This document shows positions 37,973-49,705 of a stretch of DNA of 64,000 nucleotides, piece after piece (position 1 is the first letter of the stretch; each line of letters begins with the position of its first letter). The DNA is taken from positions 1 through 64,000 of the IMG/VR virus record IMGVR_UViG_3300009506_000016; one strand, 5' to 3'. A model generated the notes under the pieces. It was given only the letters and a program-made list of their open reading frames with translations, was not told the DNA's origin and did no database searches. The translations under genes were made by a program, and so were the position numbers. Origin of the DNA: a virus.

Positions 37973-39592
37973 TTATTTGTATCCGATGAACTCGTTGATC
38001 AGTTGCGGTACGTTTCCATCAAACCCGGCCACGTCCAGAGCAAGCGGATCAGAAGTGTCACCAATCGTATACCCGGTGGGTGTCATTGACATGGTAACCA
38101 GATTGACATCATGTCTTACATGAGATCGATACTGGTTTAGAGCAACAAACGGATGAACCCAACCTGCCCAAGTTTCACTGTCTGTGATGCAAACAAATGC
38201 GTCAAAGTCACGGCCTTGTCTCTTTGCCCAAGAAAAAGCGAGTGATGCGTCTGTTCCACCAAATGACATGTGGCTCGTTATCGCCATAGCCTGATCAAGT
38301 TTCATTCCGGCGCTGATCCCGAGCGGCCTGATATTATCAGCGAAGCCGATAATCTCGTAGTTTGGCTCGGAGTTAGCAAGAACAAGTGCCATAGCCGCCG
38401 CTCCAAGGTTTGGAGTAAAACCAGCAATGCCATTGATCGATCCGTAGGTCATTGAGCCACTCACATCAAGCGCATAGCAGATATTCTTGTGTGTGGCCGG
38501 TGCGTTTTTGAATGCAGAGTAGAAAGTGTTCTCACATGCGTAAGAGATATCACGATCAACATTCCACCGATTTTGACCACGCGTATCTACGCCAGCGTTA
38601 TATTGCAATGATGCAATCAAAGCCTTGATAGGATGCAAGCGGTTTTTGTGCAACCACTCAACATCGTTGAGGCGGCTGATGATCAGATTCTTGGAATCGC
38701 GGTCTTTCAGAACACCATAACGAGTCATATTTGCGAGATTGCGGACCATTGCCTCAGCACCCATTTGGGGTAGTAGAGCGATCCACACGTCACGATCAGT
38801 CAGATATTCGGTTGGTACAATCTCTCTCGGTGCATTCGCTGTGCGAATCACATCGATGATACCTTCCTTATTGCCCCTGGCCGCATAATCTTTCATCACT
38901 TCTGCGGCTGTAATGATATCTGGCACAAGAAAAGTATTGTATTCCTTTCCCAATGACCACAACATTGCCGCTTGGTGCGCCGGTGATGCAAAGCTAAAAT
39001 CAACATGCGCAAGACGAATGACATCCTTCTGCGACCATCCCTCACGTTGTTGATATTTAGCCAACTGGTAAGCCAGCGAGTTAGGGCTACGATCAAGATA
39101 CCATTTGGAAACGGCCCGGCGCACAGCCCTTCCCCATCCGCGTTTTGCGTGCAAGAAACTTGCAAACGTGAACAGGTGAGTACCAGTACGAACAACCTTC
39201 GGCAACGCATTTAGAGCTAGCTTACGTGCGTATGCCATTCCGTTTGTGTAAGACGCGGCAACTGCAAGAGCAAAAATAGCAGGATCGTTACTTGCGGCGC
39301 GTCCATTGTCGCTCACATCAACAATCATATCAATGGTGCGCGTTGGATCTTCATTAAGACATCGAAGAATGTTGGTGTAATTCTCGAACGTCCGCTTTTT
39401 CTCGTTGGCGTAGTAGGTTGGTCCTTCTGTACCAAGGATCAAAAACCGTTCAAGTTGAGTAAACATGCCAGCATCAAACACATATCCGCCAGCGTTATTC
39501 ATAACTTGCTTTTTGCCAGGAACAGGCCGAGATTGAGGAATATTACCAACCTTGTTGCTTGTTCCAGCATTGATATAGGTTTTTCGTGCCAT
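37973..39592 (-). CDS. rsr: Ro60/TROVE-family RNA-binding protein with C-terminal VWA domain
   Basis: A 539-residue homologue of Ro60. The TROVE ring starts near residue 40 (LERFLILGTEGPTYYANEKK, DMIVDVSDNGRAASNDPAIFAL, then GTHLFTFASFLHAKRGWGRAVRRA with the basic RNA-contact region). HEAT-like helices follow, and a VWA domain begins near 365 with an intact MIDAS: DVSGSMT, the Thr of GGTDAS, and the Asp of ITDSETW. Ro proteins bind the ends of misfolded RNAs and Y RNAs and can hand RNA to a nuclease such as PNPase. ATG 39592 has GGAGG 6 bases upstream. A tRNA-like RNA lies in its leader (39626-39700) under the same promoter, as Y RNA genes do beside bacterial rsr. Phage Ro homologues are known in mycobacteriophages. 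Confidence 0.9.
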   Translation of the reverse strand: MARKTYINAGTSNKVGNIPQSRPVPGKKQVMNNAGGYVFDAGMFTQLERFLILGTEGPTYYANEKKRTFENYTNILRCLNEDPTRTIDMIVDVSDNGRAASNDPAIFALAVAASYTNGMAYARKLALNALPKVVRTGTHLFTFASFLHAKRGWGRAVRRAVSKWYLDRSPNSLAYQLAKYQQREGWSQKDVIRLAHVDFSFASPAHQAAMLWSLGKEYNTFLVPDIITAAEVMKDYAARGNKEGIIDVIRTANAPREIVPTEYLTDRDVWIALLPQMGAEAMVRNLANMTRYGVLKDRDSKNLIISRLNDVEWLHKNRLHPIKALIASLQYNAGVDTRGQNRWNVDRDISYACENTFYSAFKNAPATHKNICYALDVSGSMTYGSINGIAGFTPNLGAAAMALVLANSEPNYEIIGFADNIRPLGISAGMKLDQAMAITSHMSFGGTDASLAFSWAKRQGRDFDAFVCITDSETWAGWVHPFVALNQYRSHVRHDVNLVTMSMTPTGYTIGDTSDPLALDVAGFDGNVPQLINEFIGYK

Positions 39593-39625
39593 TTCGTACC
39601 TCCAACAGAAAGTATAGTCGTGCAA

Positions 39626-39700
39626 AACGGTTGGCGGGATTCGAACCCGCCTTTTGCCATTAACCGTTATGGAGCGGCTGGTTGCTCAACCGGTACAACC
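39626..39700 (-). ncRNA. tRNA-like RNA upstream of Ro gene, candidate Y RNA
   Basis: On the minus strand: a D-arm-like hairpin GGTTG..CAACC with a GG-containing loop (39680-39700), then a stem AACGGTT (39662-39668) that pairs perfectly with AACCGTT (39626-39632), enclosing a 10-base strand and a perfect T-arm, GGCGGG-TTCGAAT-CCCGCC (39633-39651). A normal anticodon arm and 7-bp acceptor paired to the 5' end are missing: the acceptor-like helix stacks directly on the T-arm as a minihelix. An alternative pairing gives an anticodon-like arm with an 8-base loop. Bacterial Y RNAs (YrlA) have such a tRNA-mimicking module. I could not identify the Ro-binding end stem with confidence. Confidence 0.6.
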
Positions 39701-39746
39701 TGTTCTTCTCCATTCGATGTAATAACCGACAAACAATCGTATAATA

Positions 39747-39775
39747 ATTATACCATATATTCGATCATATTGCAA
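39747..39775 (-). promoter_or_regulatory. Leftward promoter for tRNA-like RNA and Ro gene, TTGCAA-N17-TATAAT
   Basis: -35 at 39770-39775, -10 at 39747-39752 on the minus strand, with TGG directly before the -10 (extended). Transcript start is near 39740, so RNA and Ro mRNA begin as one transcript with a ~148-base leader. Confidence 0.75.
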
Positions 39776-48243: not shown

Positions 48244-48292
48244 AAGATTATCCTTTCGTCTAATATGAATAGAATTGTAACACGTACATATT

Positions 48293-48321
48293 ATTTTATA
48301 TGAATAACATGCGCGTGTCAA
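48293..48321 (-). promoter_or_regulatory. Leftward promoter, TTGACA-N17-TAAAAT
   Basis: -35 at 48316-48321 (perfect), -10 at 48293-48298 on the minus strand, 17-bp spacer. Gives a leader of about 40 bases for the 48243 gene. Confidence 0.75.
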
Positions 48322-48334
48322 TACCTAAGTTTTC

Positions 48335-49705
48335 TCAGGATGCTTCTTCAACGTCAACTGCGTTTGGATCTTCCTTGACAATACCCTCAAGAACCTGGAA
48401 CGCATAGTTCTTCGCTTTGTAAGCACGAATTCCACTCGTGTTTTCTACGCGAATCACCACACCTTCCATCAAGTGACGTTTATCAAGAGTTGAACATCTA
48501 TTGTCCAGAAACTTTTCGAGAATAACATTCAGAACACTGCTAACGTATGATTGTTCTTCATTTACATGAATATAAATCATTCTTAGAACAGGAACATGTT
48601 TCAGAAATAGCTCAGAGCATCGTTTCATAGTTTGCAACCACGATAACTCTGTCTCAATTCCATCCTCGTTTTGCACAGTGATGCGATACACGTAAAAGTC
48701 AAATGCTGGATTCATGCCACCATTATCATTCACGGTATTGCATCCGTATGAGTAAACCATTGGCCTACTGCCAATAACATCAAAAGGAAACTTAACAAAC
48801 TTGTCACGTATTTCCTTTTGTAAATCTTTATCCTTGATTTTATCAATAGATTGAGAATTCATAATCGGAGATCCGAACGTATCGAACCCGACTATCTCGT
48901 AGTATATGGTTTCCCCTTTGCGAAGTCTCCCGATCATTGACTTGTGAATTTGCCAGCGATAATGTTCCCTTCCAAGTCCAGTGATATCTTCACGGTTGTT
49001 GCATATCGTGTTTCGAGTACCGGTCACATATTCATACTTTTCTGTGACCACCGGTGCAATAACCTCACGCTTCAATACACGGTTTACCAAACTCGCAATC
49101 ATTCCAAAGCGTTCATGCTGTGCTTTGACGAATCCTGTTCGTCCGCTTGTTCCATGAAGTTTCTCTGTAATGATGAAGAAAGATCCTGGTGGGATCGTGT
49201 CCATATAATACCGGATCTGCTCGGTATCGTAGTGCTTGTTGAGCATGTAATGATCCCTAACCTTTACGGGTTTGTCGGATCTCGATTGGGCTTTGCGGGT
49301 GGCCTCTGTCACATATTTTGTACATATTGGATTTCCGTTTAGCTCGTTGAACGTAAGTCCTTGTACAAGTTCTTTTGTACTACCGGTCCATTCGAACGCT
49401 GATATCTTAACGGCAAACCCTTCTGACTTCACGCCCCTGAACGGCTGGACCCTAACTCTCCTGGTATCCTCAAAGAAACCAGTAACGGTTGTGTCTGCAT
49501 TCTTGGTAGCATCCCTATAAAGATTGTTGTAGTGGCAAAACTCATGGGATAGCTGACCATCAGGCGGAAAGATAACAACAAGATCTCCGATATGGTAATC
49601 CTTACTAACAATGAAGTTTGCACCGTTGTATGGCAGAATCATAAGTCGATCAGCATTTGGGTGATCGAGCAATTGATGAACGGATATGACGTGTGCGTTA
49701 TACAT
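48335..49705 (-). CDS. RNA ligase of the DRB0094 (Rnl5) type
   Basis: A 456-residue protein. The N-terminal ~110 residues are the OB-like domain of this family (VISVHQLLDHPNADRLMILP, FPPDGQLS). The nucleotidyltransferase core has motif I EKLHGTS (Lys182 is the AMP-accepting lysine), motif IV EGVVI (414-418) and motif V YKAKN (429-433). The enzyme would seal 3'-OH/5'-phosphate RNA ends with ATP. Start at 49705 (MYNAHVISV) follows GGAG at 9 bases; the longer frame lies in the upstream gene. It ends the operon next to those carrying tRNAs, Ro and the RNA array, so tRNA repair or exon joining is a natural hypothesis. Confidence 0.85.
   Translation of the reverse strand: MYNAHVISVHQLLDHPNADRLMILPYNGANFIVSKDYHIGDLVVIFPPDGQLSHEFCHYNNLYRDATKNADTTVTGFFEDTRRVRVQPFRGVKSEGFAVKISAFEWTGSTKELVQGLTFNELNGNPICTKYVTEATRKAQSRSDKPVKVRDHYMLNKHYDTEQIRYYMDTIPPGSFFIITEKLHGTSGRTGFVKAQHERFGMIASLVNRVLKREVIAPVVTEKYEYVTGTRNTICNNREDITGLGREHYRWQIHKSMIGRLRKGETIYYEIVGFDTFGSPIMNSQSIDKIKDKDLQKEIRDKFVKFPFDVIGSRPMVYSYGCNTVNDNGGMNPAFDFYVYRITVQNEDGIETELSWLQTMKRCSELFLKHVPVLRMIYIHVNEEQSYVSSVLNVILEKFLDNRCSTLDKRHLMEGVVIRVENTSGIRAYKAKNYAFQVLEGIVKEDPNAVDVEEAS

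What the first reader, a model, noticed from the sequence alone, without database searches (positions are those of the whole stretch)
37973..49705. Possible phage RNA repair/processing module: Ro, RNA ligase, permuted tRNAs, VWA proteins
Within 12 kb on one strand lie a DRB0094-type RNA ligase, the Ro protein, two tRNAs, three tRNA-like elements, the RNA-domain array and a 725-residue VWA protein. Permuted tRNAs need end joining, which an RNA ligase of this family can supply; Ro proteins handle misfolded tRNA-like RNAs. Co-location suggests that the phage makes, repairs or resists cleavage of its tRNAs, for example against host anticodon nucleases.
Basis: inference. Interest (0 to 1): 0.78.

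Follow-up and report, generated by a model that had tools for sequence, protein, structure and literature searches.

The report
Phage Ro protein with six Y RNAs
The 'permuted tRNAs' in this phage are an array of six Y RNAs, small RNAs that the neighbouring Ro protein should bind, and relatives of the locus show what may be an undescribed form of Y RNA in which the Ro-binding hairpin sits inside an otherwise complete tRNA.

Summary
The parts are real, but the 'RNA-domain array' and 'permuted tRNAs' are one thing: six tandem Y RNAs (44724-43901, minus strand) behind a perfect sigma-70 promoter. Each is closed by its own paired ends, all different in sequence, around the Ro-binding internal loop (GGUA-CG.../...UACC), mostly followed by GUUAUC. 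Y2 and Y3 carry a tRNA-like domain in permuted order (YrlA type), Y6 a T-arm hairpin, Y1/Y4/Y5 none. They need no ligation. A Ro gene lies 4.3 kb downstream; Ro and Y RNAs lie together in at least 133 of 172 Ro loci examined. The RNA ligase and 725-aa VWA protein are real but not a conserved part: 15 of 50 other Ro-virus records have any such ligase, none within 10 kb of Ro. So: new member of a known kind (phage Ro/Y RNA module). Relatives show something I could not find described: 41 clean Y RNAs in 33 Ro loci of bacteria and phages with the Ro hairpin inserted between D arm and anticodon arm of an otherwise complete tRNA. YrlA is its circular permutation. In 120 genomes of one class it occurs only in Ro genomes (3 of 4; 0 of 116). 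No RNA was observed; function is inferred.

The parts
44834..44862 (-). Perfect consensus sigma-70 promoter (TTGACA-17-TATAAT), about 110 nt upstream of the first Y RNA
   Evidence: 12/12 match; one of only four such sites in the 64-kb window
44657..44724 (-). Y RNA 1 (68 nt, plain): outer stem GCGGUA/UACCGC, inner stem AGUCGGUU/AAUCGACU
   Evidence: unconstrained fold recovers it, z = -2.9
44496..44639 (-). Y RNA 2 (144 nt), YrlA-type: outer stem AAGUGGUA/UACCACUU; inside, in order: anticodon-like arm 44610-44594 (AUUGU-AUAAACA-ACAAU), T arm 44588-44572, acceptor hairpin, D arm 44544-44530
   Evidence: centroid shows all arms; Rfam YrlA 21.9 bits, below cut-off 69
44351..44481 (-). Y RNA 3 (131 nt), YrlA-like: outer UCUGGUA/UACCAGA, inner GAUCACUGU/AUGGUGAUC; T arm, imperfect acceptor, D arm GUCU..AGAC
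   Evidence: outer and inner stems in the centroid, but z = -0.1
44151..44226 (-). Y RNA 4 (76 nt, plain): outer AAGGUA/UACCUU, inner GUGUUCGAU/AUCGAGCGC
   Evidence: z = -2.9
44052..44130 (-). Y RNA 5 (79 nt, plain): outer AUUCGGUA/UACCGAAU
   Evidence: z = -2.9
43901..44038 (-). Y RNA 6 (138 nt): outer CGCGGUA/UACCGUG, inner GAGAGACUG/CGGUUUCUC; holds a T-arm hairpin GCUCU..AGAGC in normal order
   Evidence: z = -1.7; overlaps only the probably spurious 5' extension of the mechanical ORF 43475-44053
43859..43894 (-). Strong hairpin GCCCGGUGGGU/ACCCACCGGGC at the end of the array (possible terminator or processing site)
   Evidence: read; overlaps the weak mir-490 hit, which is the same hairpin on the other strand
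43394..43466 (-). tRNA-Ala(UGC), with G3:U70
   Evidence: G3:U70 read by eye
46656..46728 (-). tRNA-Gln(UUG)
39626..39668 (-). 43-nt tRNA-like hairpin: acceptor AACGGUU/AACCGUU, D-loop-like AAUGGCAAAA, T arm GGCGGG-UUCGAAU-CCCGCC, no anticodon arm; in the leader of Ro
   Evidence: z = -2.3, 5 of 200 shuffles as stable
37973..39592 (-). Ro (Rsr/Ro60 orthologue) with DxSxS metal site
   Evidence: D376, S378, S380 invariant in 20 Ro proteins
48335..49813 (-). RNA ligase, DRB0094-like, motif TEKLHGTSGRTGF; neighbour, not shown to be part of the module
41176..43353 (-). 725-aa VWA-like protein (phrog_2426), unknown function; neighbour, not shown to be part of the module

Best explanation
The locus is a phage Ro/Y RNA module. 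A promoter at 44862-44834 drives a noncoding transcript that carries six Y RNAs; these are processed or fold out as separate units. Each Y RNA presents the same Ro-binding stem (outer helix ending GGUA/UACC, asymmetric loop beginning CG, inner helix, then usually GUUAUC) and a different effector: small loops (Y1, Y4, Y5), a circularly permuted tRNA-like domain (Y2, Y3) or a T-arm hairpin (Y6). The Ro ring made from the same strand binds them. By analogy with bacterial Ro, the Y RNA gates the Ro ring and its tRNA-like end is bound by tRNA-recognising proteins or tethers an exoribonuclease such as PNPase, so that Ro works on structured RNA during infection. Shown here: the sequences, the paired stems with all-different helices, the Ro gene, the Ro-Y RNA neighbourhood in relatives. 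Inferred: transcription, binding, the partner, and the effect on the host. The confidence given is for the identity as a Ro/Y RNA module; for the gating and tethering function alone it is about 0.5.
For: Six units in 0.8 kb with unlike but paired outer and inner helices; unconstrained folding recovers the outer stem in all six and is more stable than shuffles in five. The same motif is concentrated beside Ro in other viruses. At least 133 of 172 Ro loci from bacteria and viruses hold Y RNAs within 3.5 kb of Ro; that search range misses the window's own array. The closest relative by Ro (48%, L116) has two GGUACG Y RNAs directly upstream of Ro. 83 RNAs of YrlA order in 48 Ro loci. Perfect promoter before the array. 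Published: Y RNAs with a tRNA-like domain bind Rsr and tether PNPase (PMC8394870); Listeria phage CKA15 has three highly transcribed regions near an Rsr-like gene, proposed as possible Y RNAs (PMC12282133).
Against: No expression or binding data. Rfam YrlA scores only 21.9 bits on Y2, below its cut-off. Y3 is no more stable than shuffles. The array lies 4.3 kb from Ro with other genes between, whereas in most relatives it is adjacent. The descriptor was written from these units, so its shuffle test is favourable. The partner and physiological role are not tested.
Confidence: 0.9

Rival explanations
1. Permuted tRNA genes: 3' half before 5' half, to be joined by the phage RNA ligase into mature tRNAs.
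For: Y2 holds anticodon-like arm, T arm, acceptor and D arm in permuted order; an RNA ligase lies about 3.7 kb upstream of the array.
Against: The permuted part is enclosed by a Ro-type stem that three units without any tRNA domain also have. Y2's loop reads AAA, Y3 lacks U33, Y6 is not permuted. No ligase within 10 kb of Ro in 50 other Ro-virus records.
Confidence: 0.03
2. Decoy: the tRNA-like Y RNAs, held by Ro, soak up or inhibit host anticodon nucleases or tRNA-binding defence proteins and protect phage and host tRNAs.
For: tRNA-like effector domains with anticodon-like arms in about half of YrlA-type RNAs (41 of 83 with at least 4 pairs against 17% in chimeras); proposed for Salmonella YrlA as a competitive inhibitor (PMC7790460); Ro lies in or beside tRNA gene clusters in several phages and bacteria.
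Against: Half of the array has no tRNA domain. No test here; no nuclease identified.
Confidence: 0.25
3. RNA repair module: Ro, Y RNAs and the DRB0094-like ligase act together on cut tRNA or other RNA.
For: Ro and Y RNAs sit in rtcBA repair operons in some bacteria (PMC7790460), and both ligases and TROVE occur in jumbo phages (PMC7824862). Ligase and Ro are 8.7 kb apart on one strand here.
Against: No conserved linkage: 15 of 50 other Ro-virus records have a PF09414 ligase above cut-off, none within 10 kb; DRB0094-type in 4 of 22 records, one above cut-off. The ligase is found in many phages, and in the one looked at no Ro lies within 9 kb.
Confidence: 0.12

Closest known systems
Bacterial Y RNA YrlA (Rfam RF02553; structure 6CU1)
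   Same: Paired ends form the Ro-binding stem; T arm, closed acceptor and D arm in permuted order inside (Y2, partly Y3). YrlA is known to be a circular permutation of tRNA (PMC11472068).
   Different: Below the Rfam cut-off; Y2 also has an anticodon-like arm; six units in one phage array, three without any tRNA domain.
Ro/Y RNA loci of other phages (347 phage records with Ro, mostly Mycobacterium and Streptomyces)
   Same: Ro gene with a run of Y RNAs (often 2-6) and tRNA genes nearby.
   Different: Here the array has its own perfect promoter and is 4.3 kb upstream of Ro, and the motif is GGUACG rather than the common GGGCCG.
Salmonella rsr-yrlBA-rtcBA RNA repair operon
   Same: Ro homologue, Y RNAs and an RNA ligase in one region.
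   Different: The ligase here is of the PF09414 type (DRB0094-like), not RtcB; linkage with Ro not conserved in Ro viruses.
Permuted tRNA genes of red algae and archaea (from memory)
   Same: 3' part of a tRNA precedes the 5' part.
   Different: Here the permuted domain is enclosed by a Ro-binding stem, and no mature tRNA is indicated.

Membership tests
Ro60/Rsr protein family | TROVE domain plus C-terminal Ro60 vWA domain above curated cut-offs | tested here: met
   PF05731 120 bits (cut-off 23), PF25045 155 bits (cut-off 27.7)
Ro60/Rsr protein family | NCBIfam equivalog RNA-bind_Rsr NF041674 | tested here: not met
   407.9 bits over nearly the whole model, but the cut-off is 900: a member of the superfamily, not of NCBI's narrow equivalog
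Bacterial Y RNA | 5' and 3' ends pair into a stem with an asymmetric internal loop; gene close to Ro | tested here: met
   Six units with paired unlike helices, Ro 4.3 kb away on the same strand
Bacterial Y RNA | Bound by Ro | not testable with these tools
   needs biochemistry
YrlA (Rfam RF02553) | Match above the Rfam gathering score | tested here: not met
   Y2 21.9 bits against 69; none of the other five units is reported
YrlA (Rfam RF02553) | T arm, acceptor and D arm in permuted order between the strands of the Ro stem | tested here: met
   Y2; Y3 with an imperfect acceptor; Y6 not
YrlA (Rfam RF02553) | Binds PNPase; carries D and pseudouridine | not testable with these tools
   needs biochemistry
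Permuted tRNA genes | Complete tRNA including anticodon arm recoverable by joining the ends | tested here: inconclusive
   Y2 has a 5-bp, 7-nt anticodon-like arm with U33 (loop AUAAACA) but a weak D stem; Y3 lacks U33; ends are occupied by the Ro stem
DRB0094-type RNA ligase | TIGR02306 above cut-off | tested here: not met
   44.5 bits against 151.15; PF09414 and phrog_968 RNA ligase are met
RNA repair operon with Ro and ligase | Ligase linked to Ro in related genomes | tested here: not met
   0 of 50 other Ro-virus records have the ligase within 10 kb of Ro

The most novel reading that the evidence does not exclude
Many Y RNAs are remodelled tRNAs. In bacteria and phages with Ro, complete tRNAs carry the Ro-binding hairpin between D arm and anticodon arm, with ends at the acceptor as in any tRNA; some lie among tRNA genes. 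The YrlA RNAs, like Y2 and Y3 here, are their circular permutations, which tandem duplication in arrays such as this one would produce. Ro would then bind RNAs with a tRNA's processing signals, and possibly tRNAs that can be charged.
Probability: 0.55. Interest if true: 0.78.

Novelty: new member of a known kind. Interest (0 to 1): 0.6.

Why it matters
For the window: it replaces 'permuted tRNA genes plus ligase' by a recognisable Ro/Y RNA module with exact coordinates, a promoter and testable RNAs, and shows that phage Y RNAs come in mixed arrays in which only some mimic tRNA. Beyond the window: if the Ro-binding hairpin really sits inside complete tRNAs in bacteria and phages, it links Y RNAs to tRNA genes directly, offers a simple origin for the circularly permuted YrlA, and means that tRNA gene finders can miss or misread these genes: in Limnoglobus roseus (L074) ARAGORN lists none of five, and in L077 and L049 it calls only a 3' part.

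Tried and rejected
Permuted tRNA genes: rejected for the reasons above. Unconstrained folds of wrongly cut units gave poor support; refolding with exact ends recovered them. A loose Y descriptor gave many chance hits in GC-rich loci and was replaced by a motif-anchored one. Automatic parsing misassigned the partner of Y1 (it paired with Y2's 3' arm) and some distant units; counts are therefore approximate. U33 frequency was first taken as support for anticodon arms (31 of 41), but in YrlA-type RNAs the chimera control has about the same U33 frequency, so only the stem pairing (49% against 17%) counts, and for the tRNA-topology set even the stem test is close to its control. A search of viral contigs with the ligase found nothing. 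Key Y RNA papers could not be read: PMC4201824 (Chen 2014) and PMC10870794 (Sim 2020) are not held, nor was the RNA-repair survey of Burroughs and Aravind; Sim 2018 and Wang 2018 were seen only as citations. Novelty of the non-permuted form therefore rests on the held library only. The likeness of the motif to human Y RNAs (GUUAUC and GGUCCGA in hY1/hY4) is from memory; the one held paper checked did not print the sequences.
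Full report
WHAT WAS CHECKED. The window is 64 kb of a 77,565-base virus record. A fourth T arm lies in the leader of Ro.

WHAT THE ARRAY IS. The noncoding stretch 44840-43900 holds six units. Each begins GGUACG and ends UACC, the two ends pair (GCGGUA/UACCGC, AAGUGGUA/UACCACUU, UCUGGUA/UACCAGA, AAGGUA/UACCUU, AUUCGGUA/UACCGAAU, CGCGGUA/UACCGUG), an asymmetric loop follows, then an inner helix of 6-9 pairs, and in five units GUUAUC or GUUACC (Y4 has GAUAAC). All helices differ in sequence and keep pairing. This is the plan of a Y RNA. Folding the exact units without constraints gives the outer stem in all six and z-scores of -2.9 for the three plain ones, about -1.7 for Y2 and Y6, and -0.1 for Y3. 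A perfect sigma-70 promoter precedes the array; there are four such sites in the window. Y2 holds an anticodon-like arm, a T arm, a closed acceptor and a D arm in that order, Y3 a poorer version. That is the YrlA order; YrlA is known as a circular permutation of tRNA (PMC11472068) that binds Rsr and PNPase (PMC8394870). So the 'permuted tRNAs' are tRNA-mimicking Y RNAs and need no ligase.

NEIGHBOURHOOD SURVEY. Ro occurs in 347 phage records. I collected 16 viral loci, 11 annotated phages, 80 bacterial loci and 80 viral loci; with the window and after removing duplicates 172 are unique. Y RNAs were found within 3.5 kb of Ro in at least 133. The closest relative, L116 (Ro 48% identical), has two GGUACG Y RNAs directly upstream of Ro. 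The ligase does not follow Ro: among 22 Ro records 6 have PF09414 above cut-off (its tally of 7 of 23 includes the window itself) and among 28 further ones 9 (which repeats 11 of the first set), in all 15 of 50; comparing its positions with the Ro positions the nearest is about 11 kb away, most 20 kb or more. The DRB0094 model rings in 4 of 22, once above cut-off. Relatives of the ligase are found in 357 phage records, 285 of them Mycobacterium phages; in one, Snenia, no Ro lies within 9 kb of it. The 725-aa protein is found mainly in enterobacterial phages.

AN UNEXPECTED FORM IN RELATIVES. Some Ro loci hold a complete tRNA in normal order (7-bp acceptor, D arm, T arm) with an extra hairpin between D arm and anticodon arm. 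The hairpin is the Y stem turned inside out: inner strand, loop, outer helix closed by a short loop such as GCAA, GGGC-CG, inner strand, GGUUAUC, then an anticodon-like arm. A descriptor for the cloverleaf alone, blind to the Y motif, gave 92 hits within 2.5 kb of Ro on the sense strand against 7 farther away and 2 antisense (loci are short, so near and far lengths are not equal, and low-scoring near hits include chance pairings across ordinary tRNAs). After requiring the Y stem and removing doubtful ones, 41 remain in 33 loci: Chloroflexi, Planctomycetes, Myxococcales, Armatimonadetes, other bacteria and viruses. Independent of my descriptor, Rfam's tRNA model matches several end to end with the insertion (L064 6786-6908 50.2 bits, L042 3225-3358 48.2, L109 3663-3791 45.4; L015 9534-9651 46.1; cut-off 29).

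In 30 aligned examples the acceptor varies at all seven pairs and stays paired (selection for pairing makes this favourable). A covariance model from these 30 finds others that were not used to build it at 75-109 bits, while ordinary tRNAs score under about 49. In seven whole genomes nearly all strong hits lie at the Ro locus; the exception is three copies in Polyangium (G015) at another place. In 120 genomes of the class of L042, Ro occurs in four and the RNA in three, all of them Ro genomes and within 4 kb of Ro; leaving out the genome that supplied training sequence, 2 of 3 against 0 of 116, p = 4e-4 by my own Fisher calculation. In L042, L049, L075 and others it lies among 13-27 tRNA genes. 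I did not find this form in the held literature, but the key Y RNA papers are not held.

HOW IT MAY HAVE ARISEN. A tandem duplication of a tRNA with an internal Y hairpin contains, between the two hairpin loops, exactly the YrlA order. Arrays of such RNAs, as in this window, are where such a change would happen. The window itself has only the permuted and plain forms. Its 43-nt acceptor-plus-T-arm hairpin before Ro (39626-39668) sits where some relatives have the full form; it resembles a minimal RNase P substrate (established knowledge) and may mark the 5' end of the Ro message. This paragraph is inference.

VERDICT. Identity of the six RNAs as Y RNAs: confident. Function: Ro gating and tethering as in bacteria is the most likely reading; a tRNA decoy is second; a joint repair system with the ligase is weakly supported. 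For the window the kind is known; the non-permuted Y RNA of relatives is the part that could be new, and is put under the novel case.

Noticed in passing
L037, L040, L042, L049, L052, L064, L068, L074, L077, L104, L109, L114, L014, L015, L181 and others: tRNA-topology Y RNAs: Ro-binding hairpin inserted between D arm and anticodon arm of an otherwise complete tRNA, next to Ro, in bacteria and viruses.
   Followed up: yes
L195 about 1430-1551, 3779-3899 and 4053-4174 (Polyangium, G015:C11): Three similar tRNA-like RNAs with a long insertion (CCUUGGCC...GGCCAGGGUUAC) but without the Ro-type GG..CG loop, on a contig where no Ro gene was found.
   Followed up: partly
L042 608-3143; L075 1266-3317; L049 1666-3784; L196 2715-4917; L093; L052: Ro loci lie beside arrays of 13-27 tRNA genes; in L075 and L049 the tRNA-topology Y RNA holds the slot between tRNA-Asn and tRNA-Ala.
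   Followed up: partly
window 39626-39668: Anticodon-less tRNA-like hairpin about 35 nt before the Ro start codon; possible RNase P processing signal of the Ro message.
   Followed up: partly
window 44820-44730 and 44340-44235: Two further structured noncoding stretches in the array (UCGCUUGU/ACAAGCGA stem; GUGGGUGAU/AUCACCCAC hairpin) that do not fit the Y descriptor.
   Followed up: no
window 45780-46607: DUF5131 protein (PF07505, phrog_2045) with a radical-SAM-like CTKISPGCKFC motif, beside tRNA-Gln; weak match to rSAM_mob_pairA.
   Followed up: no
window 34974-35552: A second small VWA-like protein (192 aa, MDGSGSM), sub-threshold Pfam VWA.
   Followed up: no
L027 3670-3878 (Rhodococcus phage Trina): A 209-nt 'tRNA-OTHER' pseudogene annotated just upstream of Ro; may be a misread Y RNA.
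   Followed up: no
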